The notes beneath the pieces were generated by a model. It saw nothing but the letters and a program-made list of their open reading frames with translations, was not told where the DNA came from and did not search any database. 27,293 bases of DNA, taken from positions 1 to 27,293 of the forward strand of contig DZCR01000027.1 in the NCBI GenBank assembly GCA_022736495.1. The letters run 5' to 3'. Source of the DNA: Desulfobacca acetoxidans (GTDB lineage Bacteria; Desulfobacterota; Desulfobaccia; Desulfobaccales; 0-14-0-80-60-11). The number at the start of each line of letters is the position of its first letter. Positions within the stretch are counted from its first letter, which is position 1. Made by a program: the position numbers and the translations under genes. Positions 3,327-25,655 of this stretch are shown here, piece after piece.

Positions 3327-3520
3327 CCCGGACGGCGCGGGCCGGCGAAAACAGCTCGCTATCCCGCCATCAGCCCCTAATACTAAGATGCTATCTATAA
3401 AGCCATATTAAGAAATAATGTTCATCGTCTCCCCTTGATAAATTCCGAGGCAGACTGTCATATTACCCCTTCGCTCTGAGCTCTTTTCACCGAAGGCGTG
3501 CAGCGGAAAACTGTATTACA

Positions 3521-3550
3521 TTGACATCTTTGTGGACTGACTTATATATT
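3521..3550 (+). promoter_or_regulatory. Sigma-70-like promoter for the acyltransferase gene
   Basis: A perfect -35 TTGACA (3521-3526) is followed by TATATT (3545-3550, 18-bp spacing) or TATATA (3543-3548, 16-bp spacing). The expected transcript start near 3557 leaves a leader of about 20 bases before the ATG at 3577. Confidence 0.55.
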
Positions 3551-3576
3551 GATGAGATAAGGATAATCGCAGGTTC

Positions 3577-12153: not shown

Positions 12154-12330
12154 ATCCGGCCTCCAGAAGTCTATTGGATACGCCACCGGGTATCTTTCCG
12201 CAGTCCCTTGCTTGACCCGAACGCCATACGGTGAATCAGATTGGTGCGCCAGTTGCGGCAGTAATCAAGATCTCCTTTATACTGCTGAGTTTTTTAGCCT
12301 GCCTCGAAAGAACCTATTTTTTTAAAACTA

Positions 12331-12492: not shown

Positions 12493-12552
12493 ACCCAACC
12501 ACGCGGAGACCGGGCTTATAGAGGCTCTCTCTTATTCCCCGCGTGGTTGGGT
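12493..12552. repeat. Perfect 14-bp inverted repeat with 32-base loop
   Basis: ACCCAACCACGCGG (12493-12506) is exactly complementary to CCGCGTGGTTGGGT (12539-12552). The loop holds a small secondary stem (AGAG/CTCT). It lies 55 bp past the stop of the HdrD-like gene. It could end the operon transcript as a processing or stabilising hairpin; there is no U-tract on either side, so an intrinsic terminator is not supported. Confidence 0.7.
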
Positions 12553-12606: not shown

Positions 12607-13923
12607 CTATTCCTCATCCATCTCAACGCCGAGCCGCTCCCATTGGGCCGCGCCTTCGGCCTCACCCTGGGCAATTTCCTCTTCGCTCCAGGGCTCAATA
12701 ATCAGACTATCGGCCACCAGCTCCCACAGGTATTTCACCTCATATTTATAGTCGGGATAGAATTTGGGAACGCGTTTCATGAGCTGGTCGTGGCAGTTAG
12801 AGCAGGCGAGCACCAAGACATTGGCGCCGGTGCTCTGGATGGATTCATACCGTGCATGTCCATGCCAGGCGGCTTCAGCTTCATAGGGGCCGGGCCACAT
12901 GCCGCCGCCGGCGCCGCAGCAGTGAGCGTTGGCCCGGTTGGGCTCCATATCGACAAAGTTGTCCACGCACTGTTGAATAATCCAGCGGGGCTCCTCATAG
13001 AAGCCCTTGCCGAAATGGCGCTCCAGCTCCCGGCCGTGTTTACAGGAGTCATGCCAGGTGAAAATTTTGCCCTCGTTCACGCTTTTGTCGAGCTTGATCC
13101 GGCCCGATTTGATGAGGTTAACGAGATATTCATAGAGATACACGTAGTTGATCTCATTTTCCGGGCTGTCATGCACACACAGCTTCATGCCCACGCGGCA
13201 ACCGTACGAGCCCCCGCCGCAATCTGGCATGATCATTTGTTTGATGTGGAATTTTTTCATGAAGTCGATTTTGCGCTGGGCAAAGGTCCTGATGTACTCA
13301 AAGTTCCCGGTAAACAGACCCCAGTCCACCGACTCCCAGTTTTCCGACGGGATGGTCCAGTTTTCACGGGCGGCGTAGAAGATCTTCCACCACCATTTCA
13401 TGTCATCGTTGTCGGCAAAGACTTCCTTGGAATTGGGAAAAAAGAGCGTGTCGGCCCCCTCTTTATCGATGGGGACATAGAAGCCGGGGCAGTCATCTTC
13501 GGCTATTTCTTTGCCCATGTCGGACATGAGGAAAAAGTAATCTTCCTGGGGGATAGCCATGTTGTTGCCGGTATTGAAGCAGTTTTCGGCGCCCTTGTGG
13601 AGGATGCCCGGGACTTTGTCCCTGGGGCGCAGGGACTTCATGTGCAGCATGATGTAGGGGATATCGAGATCCATGGGGCAGGCGTGGGCGCAGCGGCCGC
13701 AGCCGGTGCACACCCAGGGGAACTTCGAGTCGACCACCTCATCAACCATGCCGAAATGCAGCATTCGCAGGACCTTTCTGATGTCCCAGCCTTCCATCCC
13801 GGGCGTTCCGGTAATAGGGCAGCCGCTGGTGCAGGTCCCACAGGTCAAGCACAGGTTCAGGTTAAATTTTGCCAGGGCCTCTTGGATCGGCTCCGGTAGT
13901 TTTTGCGGTGTTACAGCTTGCAT
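12607..13923 (-). CDS. HdrD/DsrK-like heterodisulfide-reductase iron-sulfur subunit
   Basis: The 438-residue protein joins an HdrC-like ferredoxin part to an HdrB-like CCG part. Two complete 4Fe-4S motifs sit at C25, C28, C31, C35 (CLTCGTCTSGCP) and C72, C75, C78, C82 (CTGCGRCAHACP), each final Cys followed by Pro. The second CCG module is complete: C294, then HCCGAGGG (C335, C336) and C374-x2-C377, which should hold a noncubane catalytic cluster. The first CCG module is reduced to MPDCGGGSYGCR (C235, C242), a form resembling DsrK-type proteins. It is last in the metF-hdrA operon and probably replaces separate HdrB and HdrC subunits, passing electrons between HdrA and the reductase. GAAGGAG precedes the ATG by 6 bases. 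The exact partner is inferred. Confidence 0.85.
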   Translation of the reverse strand: MQAVTPQKLPEPIQEALAKFNLNLCLTCGTCTSGCPITGTPGMEGWDIRKVLRMLHFGMVDEVVDSKFPWVCTGCGRCAHACPMDLDIPYIMLHMKSLRPRDKVPGILHKGAENCFNTGNNMAIPQEDYFFLMSDMGKEIAEDDCPGFYVPIDKEGADTLFFPNSKEVFADNDDMKWWWKIFYAARENWTIPSENWESVDWGLFTGNFEYIRTFAQRKIDFMKKFHIKQMIMPDCGGGSYGCRVGMKLCVHDSPENEINYVYLYEYLVNLIKSGRIKLDKSVNEGKIFTWHDSCKHGRELERHFGKGFYEEPRWIIQQCVDNFVDMEPNRANAHCCGAGGGMWPGPYEAEAAWHGHARYESIQSTGANVLVLACSNCHDQLMKRVPKFYPDYKYEVKYLWELVADSLIIEPWSEEEIAQGEAEGAAQWERLGVEMDEE

Positions 13924-13964
13924 AATGATCTCCTTCCCATGAAGACAAAAGATGGTTTAACAAC

Positions 13965-13994
13965 CCTGCGCGCAGGTCCGCCGGCAACCGGCGG
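13965..13994. repeat. Tandem palindromes between the kinase and HdrD-like genes
   Basis: CCGCCGG-CAA-CCGGCGG (13978-13994) is a perfect 7-bp hairpin touching the stop codon of the upstream gene. CCTGCGCGCAGG (13965-13976) is a 12-bp self-complementary sequence directly after it. Without a U-tract it may reduce or separate expression of the HdrD-like gene rather than stop transcription. TTTAACAACC at 13956-13965 is the same 10-mer found at 24051-24060. Confidence 0.6.
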
Positions 13995-15521
13995 TCATGC
14001 TCCAGGGCAGGGAATAAAGACGTGGAAGGTACTCCCGCGGTCAGGCGCACTCTCCACGCGGATAAAGCCGTTGTGGGCCTCAACGATGCTTTTAACAATG
14101 GCGAGTCCCAGGCCGGTACCGATGATAAATCTCGTCTTGTCGTTTTTTATCCGATAGAAACGATTAAAGATGCGGCTCAGGTCTTCAGGGGCCATACCGA
14201 TACCATTATCGGCAACACTGACCTTGAGGTAGCCGTTCTCCATGGCGGCGGAAACGGTCACTGTGCCCCCCTCGGGGGTATAGCTGATGGCATTGCTGAT
14301 AAGATTGGAAAACACCTCCTCCATATTGCGCCGGTCAACCAACACGGGAGCAAGTTCGGGCAGAGGTTCCAACGTCAGTGAAATCCCCTTGGCCTGAGCT
14401 TTAGCGGCGTGAAAGGTCACCTGATCAGCCAGGATATCGGACAGGTTGAGCTGCTCCATTTCCTGGTTGATCAGCCCGGATTCAATGCGGGCCAGGTCCA
14501 GGAGCTCGGATGACAGGGTCACCAGGCTTTTGACCTTTTCTGAGGCCCTCCCCAGAATTTCTTGTTGCTTTGGGGTGATCTCCCCGGCCAAGCCGTCGAG
14601 GATAATCTTTATTTGGGCCAGGACCGAATTCAACGGACTCCGGATTTCATGGGAAACCATGGAGACGAATTCCGATTTGATCTGGTCCATGCGCTTCAGG
14701 GTAGTGATATCGTGCAGTACGGTGATGGTTCCCACGTTCCGGCCGGCCCGGTCGATATAAGGGATACAGCGGGCGCTCAGGATCGGCCCCGTTTGACCTG
14801 TTGCGGCCTCACAGCCGATCTCTTCCGTCAGTTCCATGAGCTCATCTCCGGCCAGGGCCAGGGCGCGGTCGATCATTTGTTCCAGCGGGGCATTGTGCAT
14901 GACTTCACCGACCTCGCGCCCCACGGTCTGGACTTCCCGGCATCCCACCAGCCTCAGAAAGGCCGGGTTGGCGAGCACTATCCGCTTGGCGGAATCCGTG
15001 GCCATGACGCCGTCTGTGAGCCGATTGATGAGCACCCGCATGCGAGACTTTTCGTCGGCAATGTCCTGCATAGCCCGGGTATATTCGATGGCCTTTTTGG
15101 TAAGGACCCGCAATTGCTCGGGCGAAAAGGGTTTGGGGATAAAATCAAAAGCCCCCCGTTTCATGGCCTCGATGGAGTTTTCCACCGTAGCGTAACCGCT
15201 GATCACGATGATTATCGTGTCGGGGTGCAGCATCTTGACGTGGGCCAGCACATCGAACCCGGAAAGACTGGGCATCATCAGGTCCAGGAGAATCAGGTCA
15301 TAATGCTGGCGCTCGATCATTTTCAGCCCGACTTCGCCGGATTCGGCGATGGTCACCTCATACCCATCCCGGGCCAGGACCTTGCGGCAGCCTTCGCGCA
15401 CGCGTTCCTCATCGTCGATAACCAGAATAGTTGGGCAAGACTGCTTGCTTGCTGCCATCTTTTCGACCATGACTTCAGGGCCCTCCCCCTGGGTACGGAG
15501 AGATCGATTGCTAAAGCTCAT
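13995..15521 (-). CDS. Hybrid receiver - PAS - histidine kinase
   Basis: An N-terminal receiver domain has the acidic pair in VIDDEE, phospho-acceptor Asp in LILLDLMMP (D80 from ATG 15521), and the conserved Lys in FIPKPFSPEQ. A PAS domain follows (about 160-275). HisKA carries the His in SMVSHEIRSPL (about H291), and the ATPase domain has SNLISNAISYTPEGG, DNGIGM and GTGLGLAIV. The order receiver-PAS-kinase suggests that it receives phosphate from the preceding kinase and then acts as a kinase itself. It overlaps the end of the upstream kinase gene by 11 bp. The start is uncertain: GTG at 15533 and ATG at 15470 (GGAGG upstream, no overlap) are alternatives. It sits inside the metF-hdr operon with no DNA-binding output domain. 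Confidence 0.87.
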   Translation of the reverse strand: MSFSNRSLRTQGEGPEVMVEKMAASKQSCPTILVIDDEERVREGCRKVLARDGYEVTIAESGEVGLKMIERQHYDLILLDLMMPSLSGFDVLAHVKMLHPDTIIIVISGYATVENSIEAMKRGAFDFIPKPFSPEQLRVLTKKAIEYTRAMQDIADEKSRMRVLINRLTDGVMATDSAKRIVLANPAFLRLVGCREVQTVGREVGEVMHNAPLEQMIDRALALAGDELMELTEEIGCEAATGQTGPILSARCIPYIDRAGRNVGTITVLHDITTLKRMDQIKSEFVSMVSHEIRSPLNSVLAQIKIILDGLAGEITPKQQEILGRASEKVKSLVTLSSELLDLARIESGLINQEMEQLNLSDILADQVTFHAAKAQAKGISLTLEPLPELAPVLVDRRNMEEVFSNLISNAISYTPEGGTVTVSAAMENGYLKVSVADNGIGMAPEDLSRIFNRFYRIKNDKTRFIIGTGLGLAIVKSIVEAHNGFIRVESAPDRGSTFHVFIPCPGA

Positions 15522-17070
15522 ATCCTTCTGCACCTTGCCAGAGGGGAAGTTCCAGGAGGAAAGTTGTTCCGGCTGGGCTGGTTTCCTTCACCCAGATATT
15601 GCCGCCGTTCTCCTGGACAATGCCGTAGACGGTGCTCAAACCTAAACCGGTCCCTTTGCCCAGGTCCTTTGTCGTAAAAAATGGGTCAAATATGCGGGGA
15701 AGATTTTCCTCGGTTATGCCGCAACCGGTATCGGAGACTTCCAGGTAGGCGAAGCCTGCTGCGCCTTTTTTGCCAGCCCCTGTTTTCTTTCCCTTATCGC
15801 AGTAGGTCGTCAGGGTCAGGGTGCCTTTTCTTTCCATGGCATCAATAGCGTTGATGACCAGGTTGATAATCACCTGGTTGAGCTGGCTCCGGTCCACTTT
15901 AAGGAGCATGTTTTCGTCTGAAAACTTTTTCAACACCTCTATGTTGATGAACAGGCTCTGATCACGAATAAGGCTCAAGCTTTGTTCGACCAGTTCATTG
16001 AGATCCAGCGTCTCCTTGTTGGCGCTGGTTTGCCGGCTGTAGGCGAGCAAGCTCTTGACAATGTTTCGGCATTGATTGGCGTCTGCGATGATAGACTGCA
16101 TATCCGGGTATTTGGGGTCGTCTTTGGGCAGGTCTTCCAGAAGCAGGCCGCCGTACAGGAGGATGCCGGTCAGCGGATTGTTGATTTCGTGGGCAACGCC
16201 GGCGGCGAGTTGGCCGAGTGAGGCCATTTTCTCGGCCCGGGCTGCTCTCAGCAGCACCTTCTTAATCCTCTCCTCTTGGGCCAGTTTTTCCCTGAGGTCG
16301 TTAAAGATACCCATGGTGGCCACTTCTTTGCCGCCCTCATAGATGGTTGCGGCGGTCAGCTCCACGGGAATCTCTTCCCCTTTGGCGCTTACCAGTATGG
16401 TTTGGCTGCAGGTCAGCTTTCCTTTGCCACCGAAGGCCCCGCTCCGGAGTTTTTTCATGATTTCTTTCGCCTGTCCCGGCGGATACAGATCCAGAACCGT
16501 AATCTTGTCGCGGGCCTCCTGGAAGGTATAGCCGGTGAGCTCTTCTGCGGCCGGGTTCATGATCAGGATCTTCCCCTGCCGGTCTGCGGCAATGATGCCG
16601 CTGATCGAGCTCTGGACAAACTTTTCCATGAAGACCTTAATCCCGGAAAGCTCTCTTTCCAGCTTCTTGACATGCGTGACATCGCGGATTTTCTCGATGA
16701 TGTATCGGACCTCGCCGGCCTGGTCCAGAATGGGCGAAAAGATGCGGTCCTCCCATTTTTCCTTCCCGCCATGGACCTCCACGCGTCTAAGGATGGTCTT
16801 CCCGGTTTTTTCCGCCAGCACCTTGGAGAGCGGACAGGTGTCATAGGGGCAGGGATCTTCAGACTGGTAAAAGAATTCATGGCATTTCTGACCGATAATT
16901 TCATCTTTACAAATGCCGTAATGCTTCAAGAAGCTGGCGTTAGCATCAAGAACTACCCGGTTCGGCTCCAATATCAGGGTAGGCAGAGAAAGGGAATCGA
17001 ATACTCTCGACCGCCAATCGAACACTTCAGTGGTTTCACCGGCCTCTTCAGCCATAGAAAAACCCATCAT
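15511..17070 (-). CDS. PAS-PAS histidine kinase with cysteine-bearing PAS domain
   Basis: From ATG 17070 the protein has about 519 residues. The first PAS (about 17-127) contains GQKCHEFFYQSEDPCPYDTCP, with Cys at 63, 74 and 79 spaced like a metal, Fe-S or thiol redox site. The second PAS covers about 147-260. HisKA has H294 in AAGVAHEINNPLTG, and the ATPase domain has INLVINAIDAM, DTGCGI and GKGTGLGLSTV. No membrane segment is seen, so it senses a cytoplasmic signal. A TTG at 17094 would extend it into the repeat at 17081-17142, which I consider unlikely; ATG 17055 is also possible. It follows the CheY-like gene and precedes the hybrid kinase, making a three-gene phosphorelay set within the operon. 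Confidence 0.87.
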   Translation of the reverse strand: MMGFSMAEEAGETTEVFDWRSRVFDSLSLPTLILEPNRVVLDANASFLKHYGICKDEIIGQKCHEFFYQSEDPCPYDTCPLSKVLAEKTGKTILRRVEVHGGKEKWEDRIFSPILDQAGEVRYIIEKIRDVTHVKKLERELSGIKVFMEKFVQSSISGIIAADRQGKILIMNPAAEELTGYTFQEARDKITVLDLYPPGQAKEIMKKLRSGAFGGKGKLTCSQTILVSAKGEEIPVELTAATIYEGGKEVATMGIFNDLREKLAQEERIKKVLLRAARAEKMASLGQLAAGVAHEINNPLTGILLYGGLLLEDLPKDDPKYPDMQSIIADANQCRNIVKSLLAYSRQTSANKETLDLNELVEQSLSLIRDQSLFINIEVLKKFSDENMLLKVDRSQLNQVIINLVINAIDAMERKGTLTLTTYCDKGKKTGAGKKGAAGFAYLEVSDTGCGITEENLPRIFDPFFTTKDLGKGTGLGLSTVYGIVQENGGNIWVKETSPAGTTFLLELPLWQGAEGYEL

Positions 17071-17080
17071 CCTGGGTGCC

Positions 17081-17142
17081 AGTTCAAGGTTCAAGGTTCA
17101 AAGTTCAAAGACCCTTGAACCCGGAACCTTGAACTTTGAACC
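17081..17142. repeat. Iterated GTTCAAG/GTTCAAA repeat with inverted arms
   Basis: Heptamers of the form GTTCAAG or GTTCAAA are repeated about four times (17082-17108), followed by the reverse-complement form (TTGAAC) through 17142. GGTTCAAAGTTCAA (17095-17108) pairs perfectly with TTGAACTTTGAACC (17129-17142). The element fills the gap between the CheY-like stop and the kinase start and may form an RNA hairpin within the operon transcript. Confidence 0.75.
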
Positions 17143-17145
17143 CCA

Positions 17146-17535
17146 TCAGCGCATGAGATTTTCCCGGACGATATCCATGAGCTTATCCAGGTCTATGGGC
17201 TTGGAAATGAAATCATCCGCCGGCGTGGTTCTGCCCTCGTGATGGGTGTAGGTGGTCGTCGGCAGATTATCCACCACTGCGGTGAGCAGCACTACCGCAA
17301 TATCTTTAAAGTTAGGGTCCTTCTTGATCTCTTCGCAGGTGACATAACCGTCCTTTTTAGGCATCATGACGTCCAGAATAACCAAGGCCGGCTTCTCCTG
17401 CCTGATCTTCTCCCAGGCCTGGACGCCATCGTAAGCCTTCGCAATCCTGTAATTATTGGCCTCAAGCTTGGTGGCGACCATATCCACCAGATCGGGATCA
17501 TCGTCCACCACCAAAATAAGTTCCTTGCCGCTCAT
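17146..17535 (-). CDS. Single-domain CheY-like response regulator
   Basis: The 129-residue protein is a lone receiver domain: acidic pocket VVDDDPD (about 10-14), phospho-acceptor D55 in LVILDVMMPKKDGY, Thr in LLTAV, and Lys in FISKPIDL. It has no output domain, so it acts through protein contact or as a phosphorelay intermediate with the two kinases that follow. Its ATG overlaps the MetF stop as ATGA (17532-17535), which couples its translation directly to MetF. There is a small insertion near TTTYTHHEGRTTPADD before the conserved Lys, a feature common in delta-proteobacterial lone receivers. A role in adjusting reductase activity or synthesis is an inference from position only. Confidence 0.88.
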   Translation of the reverse strand: MSGKELILVVDDDPDLVDMVATKLEANNYRIAKAYDGVQAWEKIRQEKPALVILDVMMPKKDGYVTCEEIKKDPNFKDIAVVLLTAVVDNLPTTTYTHHEGRTTPADDFISKPIDLDKLMDIVRENLMR

Positions 17536-18494
17536 GATTTGCCTCCTCGCACTTTTTGAGCACCCAAATCACCACTATTAGGTCTGGGCAGCAGTCCCGC
17601 CCGTTCCACGATTTCGGGGACCTTCTGCTCCCACTCAATGGCCATGATGTGGAACCCCCGGACGCCTACCACGCCTTTGAGACGCTCGATGGATTCCAGA
17701 CAGATCTTGATGCCTTCGTCTGCCTGCTTGTCCTTGGGCACCCCGCCCATGCGCTTCACCACCTCATCCGGCACATCCATCCCCGGCACCTTATTTTTCA
17801 TGTAGCGCGCCATCCCCACCGACTTCATGGGCGTGATGCCGGCCAGGATATGAACTCTTTCATGCAGACCCCGGTCCCGCACCCCTGCCATCCACTTTTC
17901 AAATTTGTCGAGGTTGTAGATGCACTGGGTCTGGACGAAATCGACCCCGGCGTTCGCCTTTTTGGCCAGGCGGGCAACCCGCAGCTCAAAGGGGTCGGCG
18001 AAAGGATTGGCCGCGGCGCCGATGAACATTTGGGGAGGGTCATCGATTTTATCCCCGCCCTGGAACTTCCCTTCATCCCGCATCTCCTTCACCATCTGGA
18101 TCAACTGGATCGAGTCGATGTCGTGCACCGCGGCGGCCATGGGGTGGTCGCCGAAGTGGGGATGGTCGCCGGACAGGCAAAGCATGGTGTCAATGCCGTG
18201 GGCATAAGCTCCCAGGATGTCGCTTTGCATCGCCAAGCGGTTGCGGTCCCGGGTGACCATCTGGAGGATAGGGTTGAGGCCCATCAGCTTCAGGAGGATG
18301 CAGGCGGCCAGGCTGGACATTCTGACCATGGCCGTCTGGTTGTCGGTAACGTTGACCGCGTCCACAAAACCCCGGAGCATTTCGGCCTTTTCCCGAACTT
18401 TCTGTGCTGAGGTGCCTCGGGGCGGCCCGCACTCGGAGGTGACTGCCAGGTCTCCTGATGCCAATATTTTTTCCAGAGTGCTTGCCGTTTTCAT
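17532..18494 (-). CDS. metF: Methylenetetrahydrofolate reductase catalytic subunit MetF
   Basis: The 320-residue protein is the TIM-barrel flavoprotein that reduces 5,10-methylene-H4F to 5-methyl-H4F (or the reverse) in the methyl branch of the Wood-Ljungdahl pathway. Key residues are present: E21 in TSECGPPRG (proton donor equivalent of E. coli E28), the Asp in LSGDHP (D110, folate-binding loop), RDRNRLAMQSD and Gln in QTQCIYN (equivalent of E. coli Q183). The start at 18494 is chosen because it overlaps the MetV stop by ATGA; an upstream extension exists but would run deep into MetV. It lacks the C-terminal regulatory domain of eukaryotic enzymes. Together with MetV, MvhD and HdrA it fits a multi-subunit reductase that does not use NADH directly at this subunit. 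Confidence 0.92.
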   Translation of the reverse strand: MKTASTLEKILASGDLAVTSECGPPRGTSAQKVREKAEMLRGFVDAVNVTDNQTAMVRMSSLAACILLKLMGLNPILQMVTRDRNRLAMQSDILGAYAHGIDTMLCLSGDHPHFGDHPMAAAVHDIDSIQLIQMVKEMRDEGKFQGGDKIDDPPQMFIGAAANPFADPFELRVARLAKKANAGVDFVQTQCIYNLDKFEKWMAGVRDRGLHERVHILAGITPMKSVGMARYMKNKVPGMDVPDEVVKRMGGVPKDKQADEGIKICLESIERLKGVVGVRGFHIMAIEWEQKVPEIVERAGLLPRPNSGDLGAQKVRGGKS

Positions 18495-19159
18495 AGCGCC
18501 ATATCCTCTCTGATGATTTTCCGCGGTCCCGCGCCCCCTCCCGGACGCCAATCTTTGGCCGGCAGGTTCTCCTCGTACCTGTCCGTCATCCCCAAGGCTT
18601 TGAGGCGGTCCCAAATGAGCTGCCAGGCGCAGTCCATGTTCGGGTCCACTTCGCACTTGCCGTTGGTGGAGCCGCCGCACGGCCCGTTGAACAACTGCTT
18701 CGAGCACCGGGCTACGGGGCAGACGCCGCCGGTGTACCCCAGGACGCAGTCGCCGCAGCCCTGGCAGCGCTCGGCCCAGACCCCCTGACGCTCGGAGGCT
18801 CCCATAAACTTAGTGTTCACCGCCGGGAAGACCGGCTTGTTATGAAAACGCCGGGCAACTTCCTGGACGCCGCAGCCGCAGGCCATGGAGAGCACCGCGT
18901 CCACCTGGTCGATGAGCGGGACCAGTTCCTCTACGTACTCGGGATCGCATTGCCTCTCGAGGGTGATTTCTCTGATTTCGATGGGCTGGCCTTCTTTCAA
19001 AAAATGCATCTTGAGCGCGGAAGCCAGCACCCCGACTTCCTTGCGGCCGCCCGCGGCGCACACCGTAACGCACTCGTTACAGCCGGCCAGCAGAATGCTG
19101 CGATACGGCTTAACGCATTGGATAAGCTCTTCCATAGGTTTTCGTTCAGCAGTAATCAT
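18491..19159 (-). CDS. metV: MetV, iron-sulfur/zinc subunit of methylene-H4F reductase
   Basis: The 222-residue protein matches the MTHFR C-terminal-like MetV family. The N-terminal half has a Cys set GCNECVTVC (C27, C30, C34), C71 and the MACGCG pair (C94, C96). The C-terminal half has RCQGCGDC (C132, C135, C138), GVCPVARCSKQ (C147, C152), NGPCGG (C161) and GKCEVD (C169), the signature of the MetV Fe-S domain. MetV binds MetF and passes electrons to its flavin. It is adjacent to metF with an ATGA overlap and follows MvhD after 28 bp. An alternative start is Met9. Confidence 0.92.
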   Translation of the reverse strand: MITAERKPMEELIQCVKPYRSILLAGCNECVTVCAAGGRKEVGVLASALKMHFLKEGQPIEIREITLERQCDPEYVEELVPLIDQVDAVLSMACGCGVQEVARRFHNKPVFPAVNTKFMGASERQGVWAERCQGCGDCVLGYTGGVCPVARCSKQLFNGPCGGSTNGKCEVDPNMDCAWQLIWDRLKALGMTDRYEENLPAKDWRPGGGAGPRKIIREDMAL

Positions 19160-19187
19160 CTTGGCTCAGTCTCCTATTCCTGGCGAG

Positions 19188-19625
19188 TCAACCTGCGGCC
19201 CGCTGATCTTTATGAGCGACCTTGGCGGGATTAGGCCCAAGTTGCCGAATCTTCTCGGTGAAATCCGTGGCGATTTGGGCAAAACGCTCGCCCATGCCCG
19301 CGGACATTTCGAACATCGCCAGGCGCTCGCCTTCGATGCCGATTTCATCGAGGAGCTTCTTTAAGTAGGCCACCCGATGGGTTGCCCGCACATTGCCATT
19401 TTTGAAGTGGCAATCCCCCTCCAGGCAGCCGGCCACGAACACCCCGTCAGCCCCTTTTTCCAGGGACTTCATGATGTGAATGGCATCCACCTTCCCCGAG
19501 CAGGGCACGCGGATGATTTTCACATTGGGCGGATAGCGCAGCCTCATGCTGCCGGCCATGTCTGCCGCCGTGTAAGCACAATAGTGGCAACAGAAACCCA
19601 CAATTACCGGTTCGAAATTCTCCAT
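19188..19625 (-). CDS. mvhD: MvhD-like electron-transfer iron-sulfur protein
   Basis: The product of about 145 residues carries the MvhD cysteine pattern: GFCCHYCAY (C12, C13, C16), VPCSGKVD (C42) and GCLEGDCHF (C67, C72), which holds a 2Fe-2S cluster. In methanogens MvhD links a hydrogenase to HdrA; in Moorella an MvhD homologue is part of the MetF-MetV-HdrABC complex. There is no hydrogenase gene here, so it likely connects HdrA to MetFV. ATG 19625 overlaps the HdrA stop as TGATG; a GTG at 19628 is an alternative that adds one residue. Confidence 0.9.
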   Translation of the reverse strand: MENFEPVIVGFCCHYCAYTAADMAGSMRLRYPPNVKIIRVPCSGKVDAIHIMKSLEKGADGVFVAGCLEGDCHFKNGNVRATHRVAYLKKLLDEIGIEGERLAMFEMSAGMGERFAQIATDFTEKIRQLGPNPAKVAHKDQRAAG

Positions 19626-22600
19626 CACATTATCCCTTCCAAAAGTCCGTCTAATTTCGCCATGAGATGATCATCCTCATACTGCATGAGCTGAATCGCC
19701 TTGGCGGGACATTCTGACGCGCAGACCCCGCAGCCGTGACACAGGGACGGGTCGATCTCCGAATAGCCTTCCTCGTTGATGAACGGCACGCCGAAGGGGC
19801 AGGCCCGCACGCAGATGAGGCAGGCGGCGCACAACTCCCCGTTTACCTGGGCCACAGCCGCGCCCAGGTTGATGCTGTCCCGGGCCAGGAAAGTCTGGGC
19901 CCGGCCCGCCGCGGCCTGCGCCTGGGCGATGGTCTCCCGGATGAGCTTGGGCGCATGCGCAGTGCCGGCCACAAAGAACCCCGGGATCGGCAGGTCGATG
20001 GGCCTGAGTTTGACGTGATCTTCAAGGAAATACCCATCCGGGGTCCTGGGCAGGCGAAGGATCATGCCCAGGTCTTCGCTTGACTCCTCATCGGCTATCA
20101 TGCCGGTGCTTAAGGCGAGACAATCTGCGGATATTTTTACTTCCCGCCCCAGAATCGGATCGTTAAACGCCACGGTCACTTTGGCGCCATCGGGCTCGAC
20201 CACCGGTTTGTCTTCCGGTTTATAAACGACAAAAATGACCCCTTGCTCCCGGGCTTTCCGGTAATAGTCCTCCTCAAAACCCGGCGTGCGCATGTCGCGA
20301 TAGAGCACGAAGATCTGGGCCGCGGGATTCAGTTCCTTAATCATTAGAGCGTTTTTGACGGCCGCCTGGCAGCAGACCCGGGAACAGTTGGGATTCTCGG
20401 GTTCGCGGGAGCCGACGCATTGAATCATGGCGACTTTCTGCCAGGACTGGGCCTCTTCAGGATGATCTGCCAAAAAAGCCCCGAGGTCGAGTTGGGTCCG
20501 CACCGCCTGATGTTGGCCCAAGAGGTACTCTCGAGGACGGTTGGGGAGCGCCCCGGTGGCCAGGATCGTGATGCCGTGCCGGATTTCCCGGTAGAACATC
20601 TGGGGCCCCACCTGGATACCCGTCTTGAACATCCCGGCCATGCCCGAGTGGTCCACCACCATGGACTGCTTCCACACCTGAATCCGCTCGTGCCCCTCCG
20701 TTCTCTTGACGAGATCGGCGACAAAGGCTTGCACGTCTTCGCCCTCGAGGGTCCGGCGAACCAGCTTTGCTACGCCGCCGAGCTCTTTGAAGCGTTCCAC
20801 CAGGTGGACTTTGTAGCCCAGGTCCGCGAGTCTGAGCGCCGCCGTCATGCCGGCAACCCCGCCACCCACCACCAGGATATCTTTGTTCAGCGGCAGGGTT
20901 TGGTCAGCGAGCGGCCGGGCCAGACGCACCGACGCAATGGCCATGCGCATCAGGTCTTTAGCCTTGGACGCGGCAACACCGGGCTGGTCCCGATGCACCC
21001 AGGTGTCCTGGTCTCTCAGGTTGGCGATCTCCACCAGGTACTTATTCAAGCCCGCCTTGCGCACGGTTTCCTGAAAGAGCCCTTCATGCGTCCGGGGCGA
21101 ACAGGCCCCCACCACCACCCGATTGAGATTCTGCGTGCGGATGGCGTCCTGGATATGTTCCAGGGATTCGCGGCTGCAGCCGTAGCCGATGGTTTTGGAA
21201 ACGACCACCTGGGGGAGGCCGGCCATACTCGCGGCCAGCTCCTTGACGTCAACCACCCCGCCGATATTCAAACCGCAGTCGCACACAAAGACCCCGATCC
21301 GCGGTTCTGCACCTGCAACCTCGCGCTCGGGCGGCAGCACCTCTTTGGATTCCGCCACGACCCGCAAGGGCGTGAGGTCCTTGGCGGCATTGGAGGCGGC
21401 GGCACTAGCCTGGACCATGGTGTCGGGGATGTCTTTGGGGCTTTGGAACATACCGCAGACATAGACGCCGGGCTTGGAGGTGGCCACCGGATCAAAACTT
21501 CCCGTTTTGGCGAAGTTGTGCTCGTTAAGGTCGATGCCGATCTTAGCGGCCAACTCTTGCGCTTCCGGTGATACCCGAAAACCGGTGGCCAGGACCACCA
21601 TATCGAAGAGTTCGATGCTAAAGGAGCCTTCGTCCTCCGAGGGATATCTGATCTGGAGGTCGCCCGTTGGGGTTCCGGCTTCGATGATCGGTTCGACGGT
21701 ATGGGGGCGGGCCCGCACCAGGCGGATGCCGTAGTCGTTGATGGCCCGCTGGAGGTAGAGCTCGTAATCTTTGCCCGACGTGCGCATGTCCATGTAGAAC
21801 AGGGTCGTTTCTATATCGTCAGAGAAGCGCTCCCGGGTAACGATGGCTTCCTTGAGGGCGAACATGCAGCAGGCGCTCGAGCAATAAGAGACCGAGCCCA
21901 CCTGAACCCCCCGGGACCCGACGCACTGAATCCAGGCGATCTTCTGGGGCCGCTTGCTGTCGGAGGGACGCACGAGTTCCCCTTTGGTCGGCCCGGACGC
22001 GGAGAGGATCCGTTCGTATTCCAGGCTGGTGACGACGTTCGGGTTGACTCCATAACCATAGGTATCCAGGACCCGGGGGTCGAAGATGGCCGCTCCCGGG
22101 GCCAGGATGACGGACCCGATCTCGACCTCCTGCACTTTCTCCTGGTCGTCGGGCAGGATCGCCCCGGCCGGGCAGCAGCTTACCAGCCCCGCAAAGTCGG
22201 TGTGCTCATCTTTAATGATGGAATAGGCATACGGGGTTCCCTGAGGGTACCGCATGCAGGTGGGCGCCCGGTGATCCAGGCCGGGCGTGAAACGCACCGA
22301 CTCGGGATATTTGCGGAAACACTCGCCGCATCCTATGCATTTCTCCAGATCGATGTAGCGGGGCTGCGTCGTGAGGGTAACTTTGAAATGGCCTGCCTCC
22401 CCGGTAAGGGCGCTCAACTGTGTCATCGTCATGAGCTGGATATGCAGTTTGCGGCCGCTTTCCGATAGATGGGGTGACAGGGTGCAGAGATCGCAATTAT
22501 TGGTGGGAAAGGTCCGATCGAGCTGGGTCATGAGACCGCCGATGGCGAAGTCTTTATCGATCAGCACCACGTCCCGGCCCGTTTCGGCCAGATCCAGAGC

Positions 22601-22675
22601 GGCTCTGATGCCGCCCATGCCCCCACCGACCACAAGCACCTTGTTGCTGGATTGGAATTTTTTTGGCTCTGACAT
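19625..22675 (-). CDS. hdrA: HdrA-type FAD/iron-sulfur subunit with two FAD modules
   Basis: The 1016-residue protein is about one and a half times a methanogen HdrA. The first module has VVGGGMGG (16-22), TQLDRTFPTNNCDLCTLSP with C61 and C64, and CIGCGEC (C113, C116, C119), where the fourth ligand is Y123. A VCDCGLN element follows at 464-470. The second dinucleotide module has VVGGGVAG (602-609) and its own ATG-type FAD loop. The C-terminus holds two complete 4Fe-4S motifs: C949, C952, C955, C959 and C979, C982, C985, C989. HdrA is the flavin-based electron bifurcation site in Hdr complexes. AGGG lies 5 bases before the ATG. It is followed directly by MvhD, MetV and MetF. Whether this version bifurcates cannot be told from sequence alone. 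Confidence 0.9.
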   Translation of the reverse strand: MSEPKKFQSSNKVLVVGGGMGGIRAALDLAETGRDVVLIDKDFAIGGLMTQLDRTFPTNNCDLCTLSPHLSESGRKLHIQLMTMTQLSALTGEAGHFKVTLTTQPRYIDLEKCIGCGECFRKYPESVRFTPGLDHRAPTCMRYPQGTPYAYSIIKDEHTDFAGLVSCCPAGAILPDDQEKVQEVEIGSVILAPGAAIFDPRVLDTYGYGVNPNVVTSLEYERILSASGPTKGELVRPSDSKRPQKIAWIQCVGSRGVQVGSVSYCSSACCMFALKEAIVTRERFSDDIETTLFYMDMRTSGKDYELYLQRAINDYGIRLVRARPHTVEPIIEAGTPTGDLQIRYPSEDEGSFSIELFDMVVLATGFRVSPEAQELAAKIGIDLNEHNFAKTGSFDPVATSKPGVYVCGMFQSPKDIPDTMVQASAAASNAAKDLTPLRVVAESKEVLPPEREVAGAEPRIGVFVCDCGLNIGGVVDVKELAASMAGLPQVVVSKTIGYGCSRESLEHIQDAIRTQNLNRVVVGACSPRTHEGLFQETVRKAGLNKYLVEIANLRDQDTWVHRDQPGVAASKAKDLMRMAIASVRLARPLADQTLPLNKDILVVGGGVAGMTAALRLADLGYKVHLVERFKELGGVAKLVRRTLEGEDVQAFVADLVKRTEGHERIQVWKQSMVVDHSGMAGMFKTGIQVGPQMFYREIRHGITILATGALPNRPREYLLGQHQAVRTQLDLGAFLADHPEEAQSWQKVAMIQCVGSREPENPNCSRVCCQAAVKNALMIKELNPAAQIFVLYRDMRTPGFEEDYYRKAREQGVIFVVYKPEDKPVVEPDGAKVTVAFNDPILGREVKISADCLALSTGMIADEESSEDLGMILRLPRTPDGYFLEDHVKLRPIDLPIPGFFVAGTAHAPKLIRETIAQAQAAAGRAQTFLARDSINLGAAVAQVNGELCAACLICVRACPFGVPFINEEGYSEIDPSLCHGCGVCASECPAKAIQLMQYEDDHLMAKLDGLLEGIM

Positions 22676-22739
22676 GTTTACCCTGATCTTCTTTTTAAGG
22701 TTTCAATGAGGCTCCGGATGCTTTCCGGCGCGTCCGGTA

Positions 22740-23612
22740 TTAAAGGCCGGCATAGTCCAAAATTGCGGGTAGGCGGTGCTCCCAGCCCAGGGTGACAAAC
22801 CGCACGCCCTGCGCCAGCTCCTTTAAAGCCGCCGCGGTTTCTCCGGCCACCCGGATGCATTCCATTTCCCGGTCACCGGCTTTCCGAATCCGGCGGATCA
22901 ACTCCTCCGAAATCCCCGAAGCCGGTTCAGTGCTGGCGATATAGCGGGCTGAGCCCACGGATTTCAGCAGGAAGACGGTGGCGATGATGGGCACTGCCAA
23001 GCCCTTGGCCCGCTCCATGAATGACCTGAAGAGGTTCAGGTCGTAGACCGCCGGAGTGACGACGAACGCGGCGCCGGCCGCCACCTTCTCGCGGGTGGCC
23101 TCAAGCTCGCGTTCCAAAGCCGACTCATCCGCACACTGACACATGGAGCAGCCCATGACGAAACTGGGGTTGCCGTTGAGCTCCAGGCCCGCCAGATCAA
23201 TCCCCTGCTCCAGGGAACGAATGGCCCGGATCAACCCCAACTCATCCAGGTCGTTCACGGCCGTGGCATCCTGATGGTCGCAATTGGCCATGTCTTCGCT
23301 GCAGGTTACGATCAGATTCTGGATGCCCAAGCCATAAGCCGCCAGGATATCGCCCTGGAGCGCCATCCGGTTCCGGTCCCGGCAATAGACATGGATGATC
23401 GGCTCAACCCCCTGCTGGTTCAGCAGCACGCCACCGGCCAGGGCGCTCATCCGCATAATGCCGTTGTCCATATCCGGCACGGTGACTGCGTCAATCCGCC
23501 CCTTGAGCCGGCGCGCATGGGACACCAGCAGCGAGATGTCGACCCCTTTGGGGGTGTTCATCTCGGCCAGGACAACGAATTCGCCGGTCGACAATCGTTT
23601 TTGAAAACTCAT
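22740..23612 (-). CDS. Divergent MetF paralogue with cysteine-rich loop
   Basis: The 290-residue protein aligns with MetF along its length (EMNTPKG, RDRNRMALQGDILAAYGLG, KSVGSARYI). Several catalytic positions differ from the MetF at 17532-18494. The Glu of the entry loop is kept (E17), but the GDHP folate loop reads SEDMANCDHQDA. The AANPFADPFE segment is replaced by CSMCQCADESALE with C155, C158 and C160, and TQCIYN with the folate-binding Gln becomes TPAVYD. It may bind a different C1 substrate, or serve as a scaffold or electron-transfer subunit. AGAGGGGG precedes the ATG. It is the second gene after the sigma-54 promoter and lies 64 bp before hdrA. Confidence 0.85.
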   Translation of the reverse strand: MSFQKRLSTGEFVVLAEMNTPKGVDISLLVSHARRLKGRIDAVTVPDMDNGIMRMSALAGGVLLNQQGVEPIIHVYCRDRNRMALQGDILAAYGLGIQNLIVTCSEDMANCDHQDATAVNDLDELGLIRAIRSLEQGIDLAGLELNGNPSFVMGCSMCQCADESALERELEATREKVAAGAAFVVTPAVYDLNLFRSFMERAKGLAVPIIATVFLLKSVGSARYIASTEPASGISEELIRRIRKAGDREMECIRVAGETAAALKELAQGVRFVTLGWEHRLPAILDYAGL

Positions 23613-23650
23613 AGGCCCCCTCTTCTTTTGGTCATCGTCTGCCCTAGGTT

Positions 23651-23890
23651 TCAGATTCGCTTCACCCGAATTCGAAAGAAATTGGCGTCCTTGTTAAACT
23701 CCATATCGATCACTTCGCAGGACCCCGCGGGGATCAACTTGAAGACATCCGTCCGGGCAACCGCATCGCGCGTGATGATCTCCAAAACCTCATCCCTATT
23801 CATTTCCCGCATCACCTGAGTCATCTTGAGAAGAGCAAAGGGTGTGATAGTTTGGCTGAAATCGAGGACATAATCGGCTTTGGGCTTCAA
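23651..23890 (-). CDS. TusA/SirA-fold small protein lacking the active cysteine
   Basis: The first gene of the operon encodes about 79 residues with the TusA beta-alpha-beta pattern: DFSQTITPFALLKMTQVM, DEVLEIITRD, and a closing FFRIRVKRI strand. The TusA motif CPxP is here TPFA, so the sulfur-carrying Cys is replaced by Thr (T16). The open frame extends to TTG 23917, but that codon lies only about 8 bases after the predicted sigma-54 transcript start. AGGAGG at 23908-23903 points to initiation downstream, and TTG 23890 is the first suitable codon, though its 12-base spacing is long. It may be a structural or regulatory partner rather than a sulfurtransferase. Confidence 0.65.
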   Translation of the reverse strand: MKPKADYVLDFSQTITPFALLKMTQVMREMNRDEVLEIITRDAVARTDVFKLIPAGSCEVIDMEFNKDANFFRIRVKRI

Positions 23891-23935
23891 CGCCTTGATG
23901 CACCTCCTTTTGTTCAATCCTGCACAAACTATCTC

Positions 23936-23950
23936 GCAAGTTCAGTGCCA
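23936..23950 (-). promoter_or_regulatory. Sigma-54 (-24/-12) promoter of the metF-hdr operon
   Basis: On the minus strand the sequence reads TGGCAC-TGAAC-TTGC, a full match to the sigma-54 consensus with correct 5-base spacing. The -24 GG is at 23949-23948 and the -12 GC at 23937-23936. Transcription should begin near 23925, just ahead of the AGGAGG at 23908-23903. A sigma-54 activator gene is divergent from it. Confidence 0.85.
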
Positions 23951-24027: not shown

Positions 24028-24056
24028 GTGTTAAAGTGATAAAATTATCTTTTAAC
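24028..24056. promoter_or_regulatory. Candidate activator-binding dyad 1 (GTGTTAAA ... TTTAAC)
   Basis: GTGTTAAA (24028-24035) faces TTTTAAC (24050-24056) across an A/T-rich centre ATAAAATTAT. It lies about 80-115 bp upstream of the sigma-54 promoter, a normal distance for an enhancer site. The same half-site recurs at 24163-24194 and 24236. Confidence 0.55.
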
Positions 24057-24145
24057 AACCATTACAAATTTAAACAATGATGGCGATATTGACCGGGATT
24101 TTGGCGACGAATCTTGCAGGGCTTGTCCGGGCACCCATAAATTTT

Positions 24146-24162: not shown

Positions 24163-24194
24163 GTGTTAAAAAATATCTGGCCATTTTTTAACAC
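24163..24194. promoter_or_regulatory. Candidate activator-binding dyad 2, perfect 12-bp arms
   Basis: GTGTTAAAAAAT (24163-24174) is exactly complementary to ATTTTTTAACAC (24183-24194) with an 8-base spacer. It lies about 215-245 bp upstream of the operon promoter and about 70-105 bp before the activator start. The spacing and repetition suit a dimer of the Fis-type HTH protein encoded next door. Confidence 0.65.
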
Positions 24195-24266: not shown

Positions 24267-25655
24267 ATGTTTGAAGAAGAAGCTGACAGATATTGGAAAA
24301 CCATCGTGAACACTATCCGAGACGGCATCATGGTAGTGGACACCACCGGCTCCATCCTGTCAGTGAATAGGGCCCTGGAGACCATAACCGATTATACACA
24401 CGAAGAACTCATCGGTCAGAAATGTTCCATCTTGAACTGCAGCATCTTTAACCTGGCCCGGGAGAAATGCGGAGAACACTGGTGCCTCCTCTTTAAAACG
24501 GGGTCCATGAATATGCGCCGCTGCACGATTATGAAGAAAGACGGCACCTACGTGCAGGTGCTCAAGAATGCCTCCCAGCTCCATGACAGCAAAGGCAGGG
24601 TAATCGGCGCCGTCGAGACGATAACCGATATTTCGGAGATCGTTGAAAAAGACAAACAGATCGCCGCGATCCGTCGACACCTGAGATCTGAAGATGCCTT
24701 TCAGGGCTTAATCGGGGCCTGTGCGCCCATGCAGCAGGTGTTTGGTCTTATCGAAAACGCGGCCCAATCGGACGCGCCGGTTATTATCGTGGGTGAAAGC
24801 GGCACCGGCAAGGAACTGGCGGCCCGGGCCATCCATCAACTGGGGGAGCGGAAGAAGCGCGCCTATGTCAAAGTGAACTGCGCCGCGCTGACGGAATCTC
24901 TCTTAGAAAGCGAGCTTTTCGGGCACGTCAAGGGGGCCTACACCGGCGCTTACAAGGGCCGGGCCGGAAGATTTGAAATGGCTCAGGGGGGGGATATCTT
25001 TCTCGACGAAATCGGCGACCTGCCGCTGGCTACTCAGGTCAAGCTCCTGCGGGTGCTGGAAGAGAAGGTCATTGAACGGGTCGGCGACAGCAAGTCCATC
25101 CCGGTAGATGTGCGCATCATCTCGGCAACGAACAAAAACCTCTCTGACCTGGTGGAAACGGGGGCCTTTAGAAAGGACCTCTACTTTCGGATTAACGTTA
25201 TTCCGATCCAGATGCCGCCACTCCGGGAGCGGGTCGAAGACATTCCTCTCCTGGCCGAATCCTTCTTTCGGAAGCTGCGCATCAAGAGCGGCAAAAGCAT
25301 CGAAGGCATAAGCAACCTGGCCCTGGAAATTCTCATGAAATACCAGTGGCCCGGAAATGTCCGGGAACTGAAAAGCGCCTTTGAATATGCCTTTGTCACC
25401 TGTCAGGAGCGCTTAATTTCTCCGCATCATCTGCCACCTGATATCCTCAACGAAGAAAAATCTCTCCCAACGATGAAAGCCGAAGGGCCCAGCAAACAAG
25501 AAATCCGGAAACGGCAGCTGGTCGATGCCCTGGCCCGGGCCAAGGGCAACCAATCCATCGCGGCGGACATCCTGGGGGTTTCACGGGTTACTGTCTGGAA
25601 CCGCATGAAGCGGTTCGGCATAAGTTATAAGCGGCACCTCGAATCCCACAAATAG
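24267..25655 (+). CDS. Sigma-54-dependent activator with cysteine-rich PAS sensor
   Basis: The 462-residue protein has a PAS domain (about 8-125), an AAA+ domain (about 147-380) and a Fis-type HTH (about 415-455, ending in AADILGVSRVTVWNRMKRF). The AAA+ part shows Walker A GESGTGKE (176-183), the sigma-54 contact loop GAYTGA (223-228, Tyr in place of the usual Phe), Walker B GGDIFLDEIGD (241-251) and the arginine-finger region FRKDLYFRIN. The PAS holds C53, C58, C68, C73 and C86, suggesting Fe-S, metal or thiol sensing. There is no receiver domain, so it responds to a ligand or redox signal directly. It is divergent from the metF-hdr operon, which has a consensus sigma-54 promoter, making that operon its probable target. 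Confidence 0.92.
   Translation: MFEEEADRYWKTIVNTIRDGIMVVDTTGSILSVNRALETITDYTHEELIGQKCSILNCSIFNLAREKCGEHWCLLFKTGSMNMRRCTIMKKDGTYVQVLKNASQLHDSKGRVIGAVETITDISEIVEKDKQIAAIRRHLRSEDAFQGLIGACAPMQQVFGLIENAAQSDAPVIIVGESGTGKELAARAIHQLGERKKRAYVKVNCAALTESLLESELFGHVKGAYTGAYKGRAGRFEMAQGGDIFLDEIGDLPLATQVKLLRVLEEKVIERVGDSKSIPVDVRIISATNKNLSDLVETGAFRKDLYFRINVIPIQMPPLRERVEDIPLLAESFFRKLRIKSGKSIEGISNLALEILMKYQWPGNVRELKSAFEYAFVTCQERLISPHHLPPDILNEEKSLPTMKAEGPSKQEIRKRQLVDALARAKGNQSIAADILGVSRVTVWNRMKRFGISYKRHLESHK

What the first reader, a model, noticed from the sequence alone, without database searches (positions are those of the whole stretch)
12607..23950. One sigma-54-driven operon joins a MetFV-HdrA-MvhD reductase to its own signalling genes
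Ten minus-strand genes run in series with short gaps or overlaps from a consensus sigma-54 promoter: TusA-like, MetF paralogue, HdrA, MvhD, MetV, MetF, CheY-like, kinase, hybrid kinase, HdrD-like. The enzyme genes match the hexaheteromeric MetFV-HdrABC-MvhD reductase described for Moorella thermoacetica. What differs is the single HdrD/DsrK-like subunit in place of HdrB plus HdrC, a second MetF, a TusA-like protein, and three two-component proteins placed between MetF and the HdrD-like gene. A reductase operon carrying an internal phosphorelay is unusual and suggests direct control of C1 flux or electron bifurcation.
Basis: partly seen in the sequence, partly recalled or inferred. Interest (0 to 1): 0.85.

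Follow-up and report, generated by a model that had tools for sequence, protein, structure and literature searches.

The report
C1 reductase operon with built-in signalling
In many sulfate-reducing bacteria and their relatives, the genes for a key one-carbon enzyme complex share an operon with their own sensor kinases and switch protein, which suggests that this step of carbon metabolism is under dedicated signalling control.

Summary
In detail: ten minus-strand genes (12607-23917) follow an exact sigma-54 site. The signalling genes are no local oddity. Among 80 related metV loci the receiver follows metF in 74 of 77 readable ones. Of 52 loci with enough downstream DNA, 50 hold receiver and kinase, 38 all three proteins, 41 also ACT proteins that the window lacks. 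Only 1 of 20 other metVF loci (15 further copies, 5 divergent ones) has the receiver. Three Cys of the kinase PAS are invariant in 66 of 66, four of the activator PAS in 24-26 of 26, which suggests redox sensing. The structural points are weaker: HdrD-like in 2 of 41 complete loci, HdrB in 24, neither in 15; the TusA-like protein lacks the sulfur-carrier Cys (0 of 28) and MetF2 the folate-site Gln (2 of 82). I read it as an Hdr-type methylene-THF reductase with its own transcriptional and phosphorylation control. What the receiver acts on is unknown; the enzyme itself is my first guess (about 0.4).

The parts
24267..25655 (+). divergent PAS / sigma-54 AAA+ / Fis activator without receiver domain; PAS with conserved Cys53, 58, 73, 86
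   Evidence: Pfam; sequence; Cys 26, 26, 25 and 24 of 26; PAS and no receiver found in the 25 relatives' divergent activators
24164..24193 (.). TGTTAA...TTAACA pair, candidate activator site about 235 bp from the promoter
   Evidence: 72 half-sites in 26 intergenic regions against 7.45 (sd 2.7, largest 17 of 500) in first-order random sequence; L060 has none
24029..24057 (.). TGTTAA...TTAACA pair, candidate activator site about 100 bp from the promoter
23936..23950 (-). sigma-54 -24/-12 site TGGCACTGAACTTGC
23651..23890 (-). TusA-like protein without the CPxP cysteine (ORF open to 23917)
   Evidence: Pfam TusA 32.2 bits, cut-off 28.6; no Cys at the motif in 28 of 28
22740..23612 (-). MetF2, MetF paralogue with altered folate-site residues
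   Evidence: Pfam MTHFR; 32% identical to MetF; residues
19625..22675 (-). HdrA, 1016 aa: TrxR-like core, then HdrA N-terminal domain, second TrxR-like core and C-terminal two-cluster ferredoxin domain
19188..19628 (-). MvhD/FlpD
   Evidence: Pfam FlpD 1.8e-53
18491..19159 (-). MetV
   Evidence: Pfam DUF5981 9.3e-39
17532..18494 (-). MetF, methylene-THF reductase, 320 aa
   Evidence: Pfam MTHFR 1.4e-37; start codon
17146..17535 (-). CheY-like single receiver domain, ATGA overlap with metF
   Evidence: Asp12, Thr85, Lys112 in 100 and Asp55 in 101 of 101
15511..17094 (-). PAS-PAS histidine kinase, no membrane segment; PAS1 with invariant Cys71, 82, 87
13995..15533 (-). receiver-PAS-HisKA-HATPase kinase
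12607..13923 (-). HdrD-like protein (relative of HmcF, TmcB, DsrK): two [4Fe-4S] motifs, one complete CCG motif
12495..12550 (-). stem with 12-bp arms behind the last gene, possible transcript end; loop too long for the scan, no T run
   Evidence: read by eye

Best explanation
The operon makes an Hdr-type methylene-tetrahydrofolate reductase of the Wood-Ljungdahl pathway (MetF and MetV as catalytic pair, MvhD and a double HdrA as electron-transfer and flavin core, here with an HdrD-like outlet) together with its own regulators. Amount: the divergent PAS sigma-54 activator, probably sensing redox state in the cytoplasm through a Cys cluster, binds the TGTTAA pairs and opens the -24/-12 promoter. 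Activity: the soluble Cys-PAS kinase and the receiver kinase set the phosphorylation of the CheY-like receiver, which is probably translated in coupling with MetF and, I think most likely, binds the MetVF-Hdr complex and adjusts its activity or its electron partner. Shown by sequence: genes, order, conservation, promoter and site enrichment, intact phosphorylation residues, invariant Cys. Inferred: the enzymatic reaction, redox sensing, kinase-receiver pairing, the receiver's target. Operon with cognate signalling module: about 0.9; receiver acting on the enzyme: about 0.4.
For: Receiver within about 0.4 kb behind metF in 74 of 77 readable loci (70 by script; L003, L004, L020, L070 read; L056, L065, L076 end at the contig edge). 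In 26 of 39 scorable loci of 40 further genomes, most of more divergent type. It stays behind metF where both kinases lie on the other strand (L079; L091, L095, L125). In four of four genomes searched the window receiver's best match is the one in this operon, among 106-194 first-look candidates; the second best in G001 and G004 lies behind another metVF. Pairwise distances of the operon's proteins rise together (r 0.81-0.94; with MetF 0.81-0.89). Phosphorylation residues intact, kinase Cys 66 of 66, activator Cys 24-26 of 26. Sigma-54 sites in 21 of 26 plus L001; half-sites 72 against 7.45 expected. The divergent window-type activator has no receiver domain in 25 of 25 relatives, so this branch must end elsewhere. 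All 10 of 10 chosen genomes with such operons carry CdhC/AcsB.
Against: Divergent metVF loci carry a sigma-54 activator with receiver domain (L090, L095, L096, L097, L107, L125, L145), so the relay may feed transcription. L015, L018 and L021 have no receiver behind metF, and 12 of 52 loci have receiver and kinase but no receiver kinase. 13 of 39 loci of the second set lack the receiver, and three of the 26 first hits there are only 29-36% identical. The second-best receivers of G002 and G003 do not stand behind a metVF. Correlated distances are also what plain inheritance as one operon gives.
Confidence: 0.5

Rival explanations
1. The kinases and receiver serve transcription only: they phosphorylate a receiver-bearing sigma-54 activator encoded elsewhere (for instance beside a paralogous metVF operon), and the single receiver is a phosphate sink or relay step.
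For: Receiver-type activators stand in seven divergent metVF loci, among them L145 in G001, the genome of the nearest relative, with the order MetV-MetF-receiver-ACT-kinase-receiver kinase-activator.
Against: The window-type divergent activator has its own Cys-PAS and no receiver domain; L097, L107 and L145 keep a separate single receiver beside the receiver-type activator.
Confidence: 0.3
2. The reductase has another job (for example methyl groups for biosynthesis, or MetF2 acting on another C1 carrier) and not the Wood-Ljungdahl step.
For: G001-G004 have 2-5 MetV matches each; MetF2 has lost folate-site residues, so the complex is no plain copy of the Moorella type; G087 has a close MetV copy but no CdhC match.
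Against: MetF, MetV, MvhD and HdrA match the set described for Hdr-type reductases; CdhC/AcsB is present in 10 of 10 chosen genomes and in 6 of the 7 genomes of the phylum draw with the closest MetV copies, against 101 of 158 overall.
Confidence: 0.12
3. The signalling genes are neighbours without functional link to the enzyme.
For: Two-component genes are abundant in these genomes (106-194 first-look receiver candidates each).
Against: Receiver and kinase present in 50 of 52 loci, receiver behind metF in 74 of 77, 4-bp overlap with metF in the window; 1 of 20 other metVF loci has it.
Confidence: 0.05

Closest known systems
Hdr-type methylene-THF reductase MetVF-MvhD-HdrABC of Sporomusa ovata and Moorella thermoacetica (PMC9430772, passages seen)
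   Same: MetF, MetV, MvhD and an HdrA with an extra N-terminal TrxR-like domain in one gene cluster; interaction of MetVF with HdrA, HdrB and MvhD was shown by pull-down for S. ovata
   Different: HdrB and HdrC absent from the window (HdrD-like gene instead); added MetF2, TusA-like protein, receiver, two kinases and a sigma-54 activator. A search of that paper for response regulator, two-component, CheY and regulator found none
hdr/mvhD loci of Desulfobacterium autotrophicum HRM2 (PMC2702500, sections 18 and 20 read, passages elsewhere)
   Same: the Fig. 4 legend lists a CheY-like regulator, a response regulator and a histidine kinase beside hdr genes
   Different: figure not visible to me; sections 18 and 20 do not discuss these genes; the passages seen on the Wood-Ljungdahl locus name MetF1 without them
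Hmc/Tmc redox complexes with adjacent regulators and kinases in Desulfococcus multivorans and Desulfovibrio vulgaris (PMC5109826, passages seen)
   Same: electron-transfer complex genes directly beside several kinases and response regulators
   Different: other complexes; regulators described there as DNA-binding; the window receiver scores 67 bits against a cut-off of 160 for the NCBIfam DVU0259 receiver model

Membership tests
Hdr-type MetVF methylene-THF reductase | MetF with MTHFR fold | tested here: met
   PF02219 1.4e-37; PDB methylenetetrahydrofolate reductase chains 3apt, 1v93, 6fcx matched; Gly-Asp and Thr-Gln motifs in 80 of 80
Hdr-type MetVF methylene-THF reductase | MetV partner with Cys motifs | tested here: met
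   PF12225 9.3e-39; 14 of 15 Cys invariant in 30 sequences
Hdr-type MetVF methylene-THF reductase | MvhD and HdrA in the cluster | tested here: met
Hdr-type MetVF methylene-THF reductase | HdrB and HdrC in the cluster | tested here: not met
   none among the ten genes; HdrD-like gene instead; HdrB in 24 of 41 complete relatives
Hdr-type MetVF methylene-THF reductase | methylene-THF reduction and electron bifurcation | not testable with these tools
   needs protein
sigma-54-dependent operon | -24/-12 site conserved at the operon start | tested here: met
   21 of 26 loci at 8 of 10 or better, L001 exact; L003, L018, L028, L044 not
sigma-54-dependent operon | AAA+ activator with GAFTGA-type loop and upstream sites (loop recalled) | tested here: met
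   GAYTGA in the window; Tyr 21, Phe 5 of 26; half-sites
two-component system | phosphoacceptor His and Asp residues | tested here: met
   kinase His302 66 of 66, receiver kinase His295 and Asp84 49 of 49, receiver Asp55 101 of 101
TusA sulfur carrier | catalytic Cys of the CPxP motif (recalled) | tested here: not met
   Ser 21, Thr 5, Ile 1, Lys 1 at that place, no Cys at alignment positions 22-29 in 28 members
catalytic MetF (for MetF2) | Thr-Gln and Gly-Asp motifs as in MetF (role recalled) | tested here: not met
   Gln in 2 of 82 (Pro in 70) at the Gln place; Glu in 68 of 82 next to it where MetF has its Gly-Asp; conserved Glu17 in 80 of 82
HdrD/DsrK-type CCG protein | CCG motif plus two [4Fe-4S] motifs (recalled) | tested here: met
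   Pfam CCG and Fer4; C294, CC335/336, C374-C377 and two CxxCxxCxxxC sets; below the cut-offs of the HmcF, TmcB and DsrK models

The most novel reading that the evidence does not exclude
A Wood-Ljungdahl enzyme complex with its own phosphorylatable CheY-like subunit: the receiver binds the MetVF-Hdr complex and, told by a redox-sensing Cys-PAS kinase and in most related loci also by ACT ligand sensors, switches the complex between electron partners or directions (CO2 fixation or acetate oxidation).
Probability: 0.3. Interest if true: 0.88.

Novelty: new variant of a known kind. Interest (0 to 1): 0.62.

Why it matters
How sulfate reducers control the reversible Wood-Ljungdahl pathway is little understood (recalled). 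A signalling module tied to the methylene-THF reductase in loci titled Desulfobacterales, Desulfobacteraceae, Syntrophobacterales, Desulfobulbaceae and Desulfocarbo gives named genes to test, some in cultured strains (Desulfoferrobacter suflitae L010, Desulfoprunum benzoelyticum L049, Desulfosediminicola flagellatus L080, Desulfopila aestuarii L066). It also bears on annotation: many receivers of this subfamily are named PhoP of alkaline phosphatase synthesis in source databases.

Tried and rejected
Considered and dropped: a sulfurtransferase role for the TusA-like protein (no Cys); the HdrD-like gene as the defining difference (2 of 41 complete relatives); a known RNA element (no Rfam match); chance proximity of the signalling genes. 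Literature: ten searches of the open-access library gave no paper in which the passages I saw describe receiver or kinase genes as part of a metFV operon; subscription papers are not covered, figures not visible, and most listed papers were seen as listings only. Passages seen: PMC10553843, PMC6085437, PMC9430772, PMC7325909, PMC12827605, PMC11887813, PMC5109826, PMC4103992, PMC4046663; in PMC2702500 sections 18 and 20 plus passages.

Limits of the samples: L001-L080 are the best 80 of 361 relatives, thus close to the window; L013 and L014 come from one MAG. L085-L124 are the best MetV copies of 40 out of 116 genomes with MetV in a draw of 158, taken from the top of the list, some copies at contig edges skipped; L106 could not be scored. 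L125-L144 are 15 further copies plus the best copies of 5 genomes with divergent MetV. L145-L151 were picked in part because the receiver search hit there and are in none of these counts. L081-L084 repeat L001, L063, L010 and L080 and were left out. Kinase, receiver-kinase and activator alignments used identity cut-offs of 48, 52 and 55%, so distant members are not in the Cys counts; all alignments include the window. Presence means a tblastn match anywhere in the locus, on either strand. ACT proteins: the second has Pfam ACT matches; the first matches aspartokinase regulatory domains (best E 2e-6) and 11 of 31 members hit ACT_9 at E 0.1 or better, while a direct profile comparison of the two was weak (probability 17%). 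No locus outside this phylum was reached.
Full report
What is there. Ten minus-strand genes run from 23917 to 12607 behind an exact -24/-12 sigma-54 element at 23936-23950. HdrA-MvhD, MetV-MetF and MetF-receiver overlap by 4 bp. The gene facing away, 24267-25655, is a PAS/AAA+/Fis sigma-54 activator without receiver domain; the finding did not mention it. Between the two lie TGTTAA/TTAACA pairs at 24164-24193 and 24029-24057. A stem with 12-bp arms follows the last gene (by eye).

Proteins. MetF, MetV and MvhD are plain family members. HdrA is 1016 aa: a first TrxR-like core, then the usual HdrA N-terminal domain, a second TrxR-like core and a C-terminal two-cluster ferredoxin domain. S. ovata HdrA is described with an extra N-terminal TrxR-like domain too (PMC9430772, passages). 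MetF2 is 32% identical to MetF; MetF has Gly-Asp and Thr-Gln in 80 of 80 relatives, MetF2 has the Gln in 2 of 82 and Pro in 70. In E. coli MetF such residues hold folate and flavin (recalled). The TusA-like protein has no Cys at the CPxP place in 28 of 28. The HdrD-like protein resembles HmcF, TmcB and DsrK, below their cut-offs, with one complete CCG motif. The receiver keeps its phosphorylation residues and carries a short insertion with T-x-Y-T-H-x-x-G, the His in 87 of 101. Both kinases show no membrane segment in a hydropathy scan.

Conservation. A scan with a MetV alignment gave 80 loci; titles are deltaproteobacterial names, except L004 (Thermodesulfobacteriota) and L051 (Proteobacteria). 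The order MetF2-HdrA-MvhD-MetV-MetF-receiver-kinase-receiver kinase recurs. The receiver lies within about 0.4 kb behind metF in 74 of 77 readable loci: 70 by script, four by reading; three loci end at the contig edge; L015, L018 and L021 lack it. By tblastn, of 52 loci with at least 6.5 kb downstream, 50 have the receiver, 50 the kinase, 38 the receiver kinase, 41 an ACT-like protein; L015 and L021 have none of them and 12 lack only the receiver kinase.

ACT proteins. Two ORFs of about 170 aa, or one fused ORF of 326-367 aa, fill the space between receiver and kinase in most loci. In the window and in nine relatives the gap is 32-203 bp with no ORF; L012 is a tenth (134 bp; the script misread it). 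The second protein has Pfam ACT matches. The first matches aspartokinase regulatory domains, 11 of 31 members hit ACT_9; a direct comparison of the two is weak.

Controls. In 40 other genomes of the phylum, 26 of 39 scorable best MetV copies have a receiver behind metF, 29-65% identical to the window's; 13 do not. Among 20 further or divergent copies 1 has one. In four genomes with 106-194 first-look candidates the best match of the window receiver is the operon's own. The second best stands behind another metVF in G001 and G004 (L145, L147) but not in G002 or G003 (L146 shows no metVF); a weaker G003 match lies in a metVF locus (L148). Pairwise distances of seven operon proteins correlate at 0.81-0.94, which inheritance as one operon also explains.

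Control of transcription. Of 26 loci with the divergent activator, 21 have a sigma-54 match of 8 of 10 or better, 15 of them 9 or 10; L003, L018, L028, L044 do not. L001 scored zero through a misplaced ORF start but has an exact site at 5229-5243. TGTTAA half-sites number 72 in the 26 intergenic regions against 7.45 (sd 2.7, largest of 500 runs 17) in first-order random sequence; L060 has none.

Sensing. Kinase PAS1 has Cys71, 82 and 87 in 66 of 66 homologues; activator PAS has Cys53 and 58 in 26 of 26, Cys73 in 25, Cys86 in 24. This suggests a metal or Fe-S cluster or a thiol switch in both; that is inference.

Where the phosphate goes. The divergent activators of the 25 relatives carry the PAS domain and no detected receiver domain. 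Divergent metVF loci L090, L095, L096, L097, L107, L125 and L145 carry receiver-type activators. In L145, from the genome of the nearest relative, the order is MetV-MetF-receiver-ACT-kinase-receiver kinase-activator. The separate receiver is kept in both kinds and stays behind metF where the kinases lie on the other strand (L079, L091, L095, L125). I therefore favour a target other than DNA for the receiver, most simply the reductase complex, at about 0.4, with transcription through another activator at about 0.3.

Accessory electron modules vary. Of 41 loci complete on both sides 24 have HdrB, 2 the HdrD-like gene, 15 neither (2 of all 80 have the HdrD-like gene, L003 and L010). Behind the kinase L080 has a NarI/Fe-S protein and a CCG protein, and L036 has ORFs of like size; L015 has an Fe-S protein without NarI match and a CCG protein directly behind metF. 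A membrane link in some lineages is possible.

Pathway. CdhC/AcsB is present in 10 of 10 genomes with such operons that I chose and in 6 of the 7 genomes of the phylum draw with the closest MetV copies, G087 being the exception, against 101 of 158 in all.

Verdict. Observation confirmed; interpretation partly supported. The notable result is a conserved regulatory module on a central C1 enzyme that I found described nowhere in the passages seen, not a local curiosity. That absence rests on ten searches of an open-access library; a 2009 figure legend lists such genes near hdr loci without comment in the two sections read.

Noticed in passing
L016:12286-13331, L039:12067-13174, L080:12088-13166, L062:7369-8349 and others: Aspartokinase-like ACT proteins, a pair or one fusion, between receiver and kinase; an ACT match in 41 of 52 loci but not in the window.
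   Followed up: partly
L080:15062-17712, L015:10964-13681: NarI/Fe-S protein (L080) or Fe-S protein without NarI match (L015) plus a CCG protein in the metFV neighbourhood: possible quinone-linked version of the complex.
   Followed up: partly
L145:1-8123: Second metVF locus of the nearest relative's genome with receiver, ACT, kinase, receiver kinase and a receiver-type sigma-54 activator in series.
   Followed up: partly
window 6360-12186, minus strand: CHASE2 / nucleotide-cyclase protein overlapping a 1282-aa FecR-TPR protein downstream of the operon.
   Followed up: no
window 1854-6279, plus strand: PAS histidine kinase followed by a glycerol-3-phosphate acyltransferase.
   Followed up: no
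P0132-P0135 and others: Receivers of this subfamily bear the source name alkaline phosphatase synthesis regulator PhoP although at 128 aa they have only a receiver domain.
   Followed up: no
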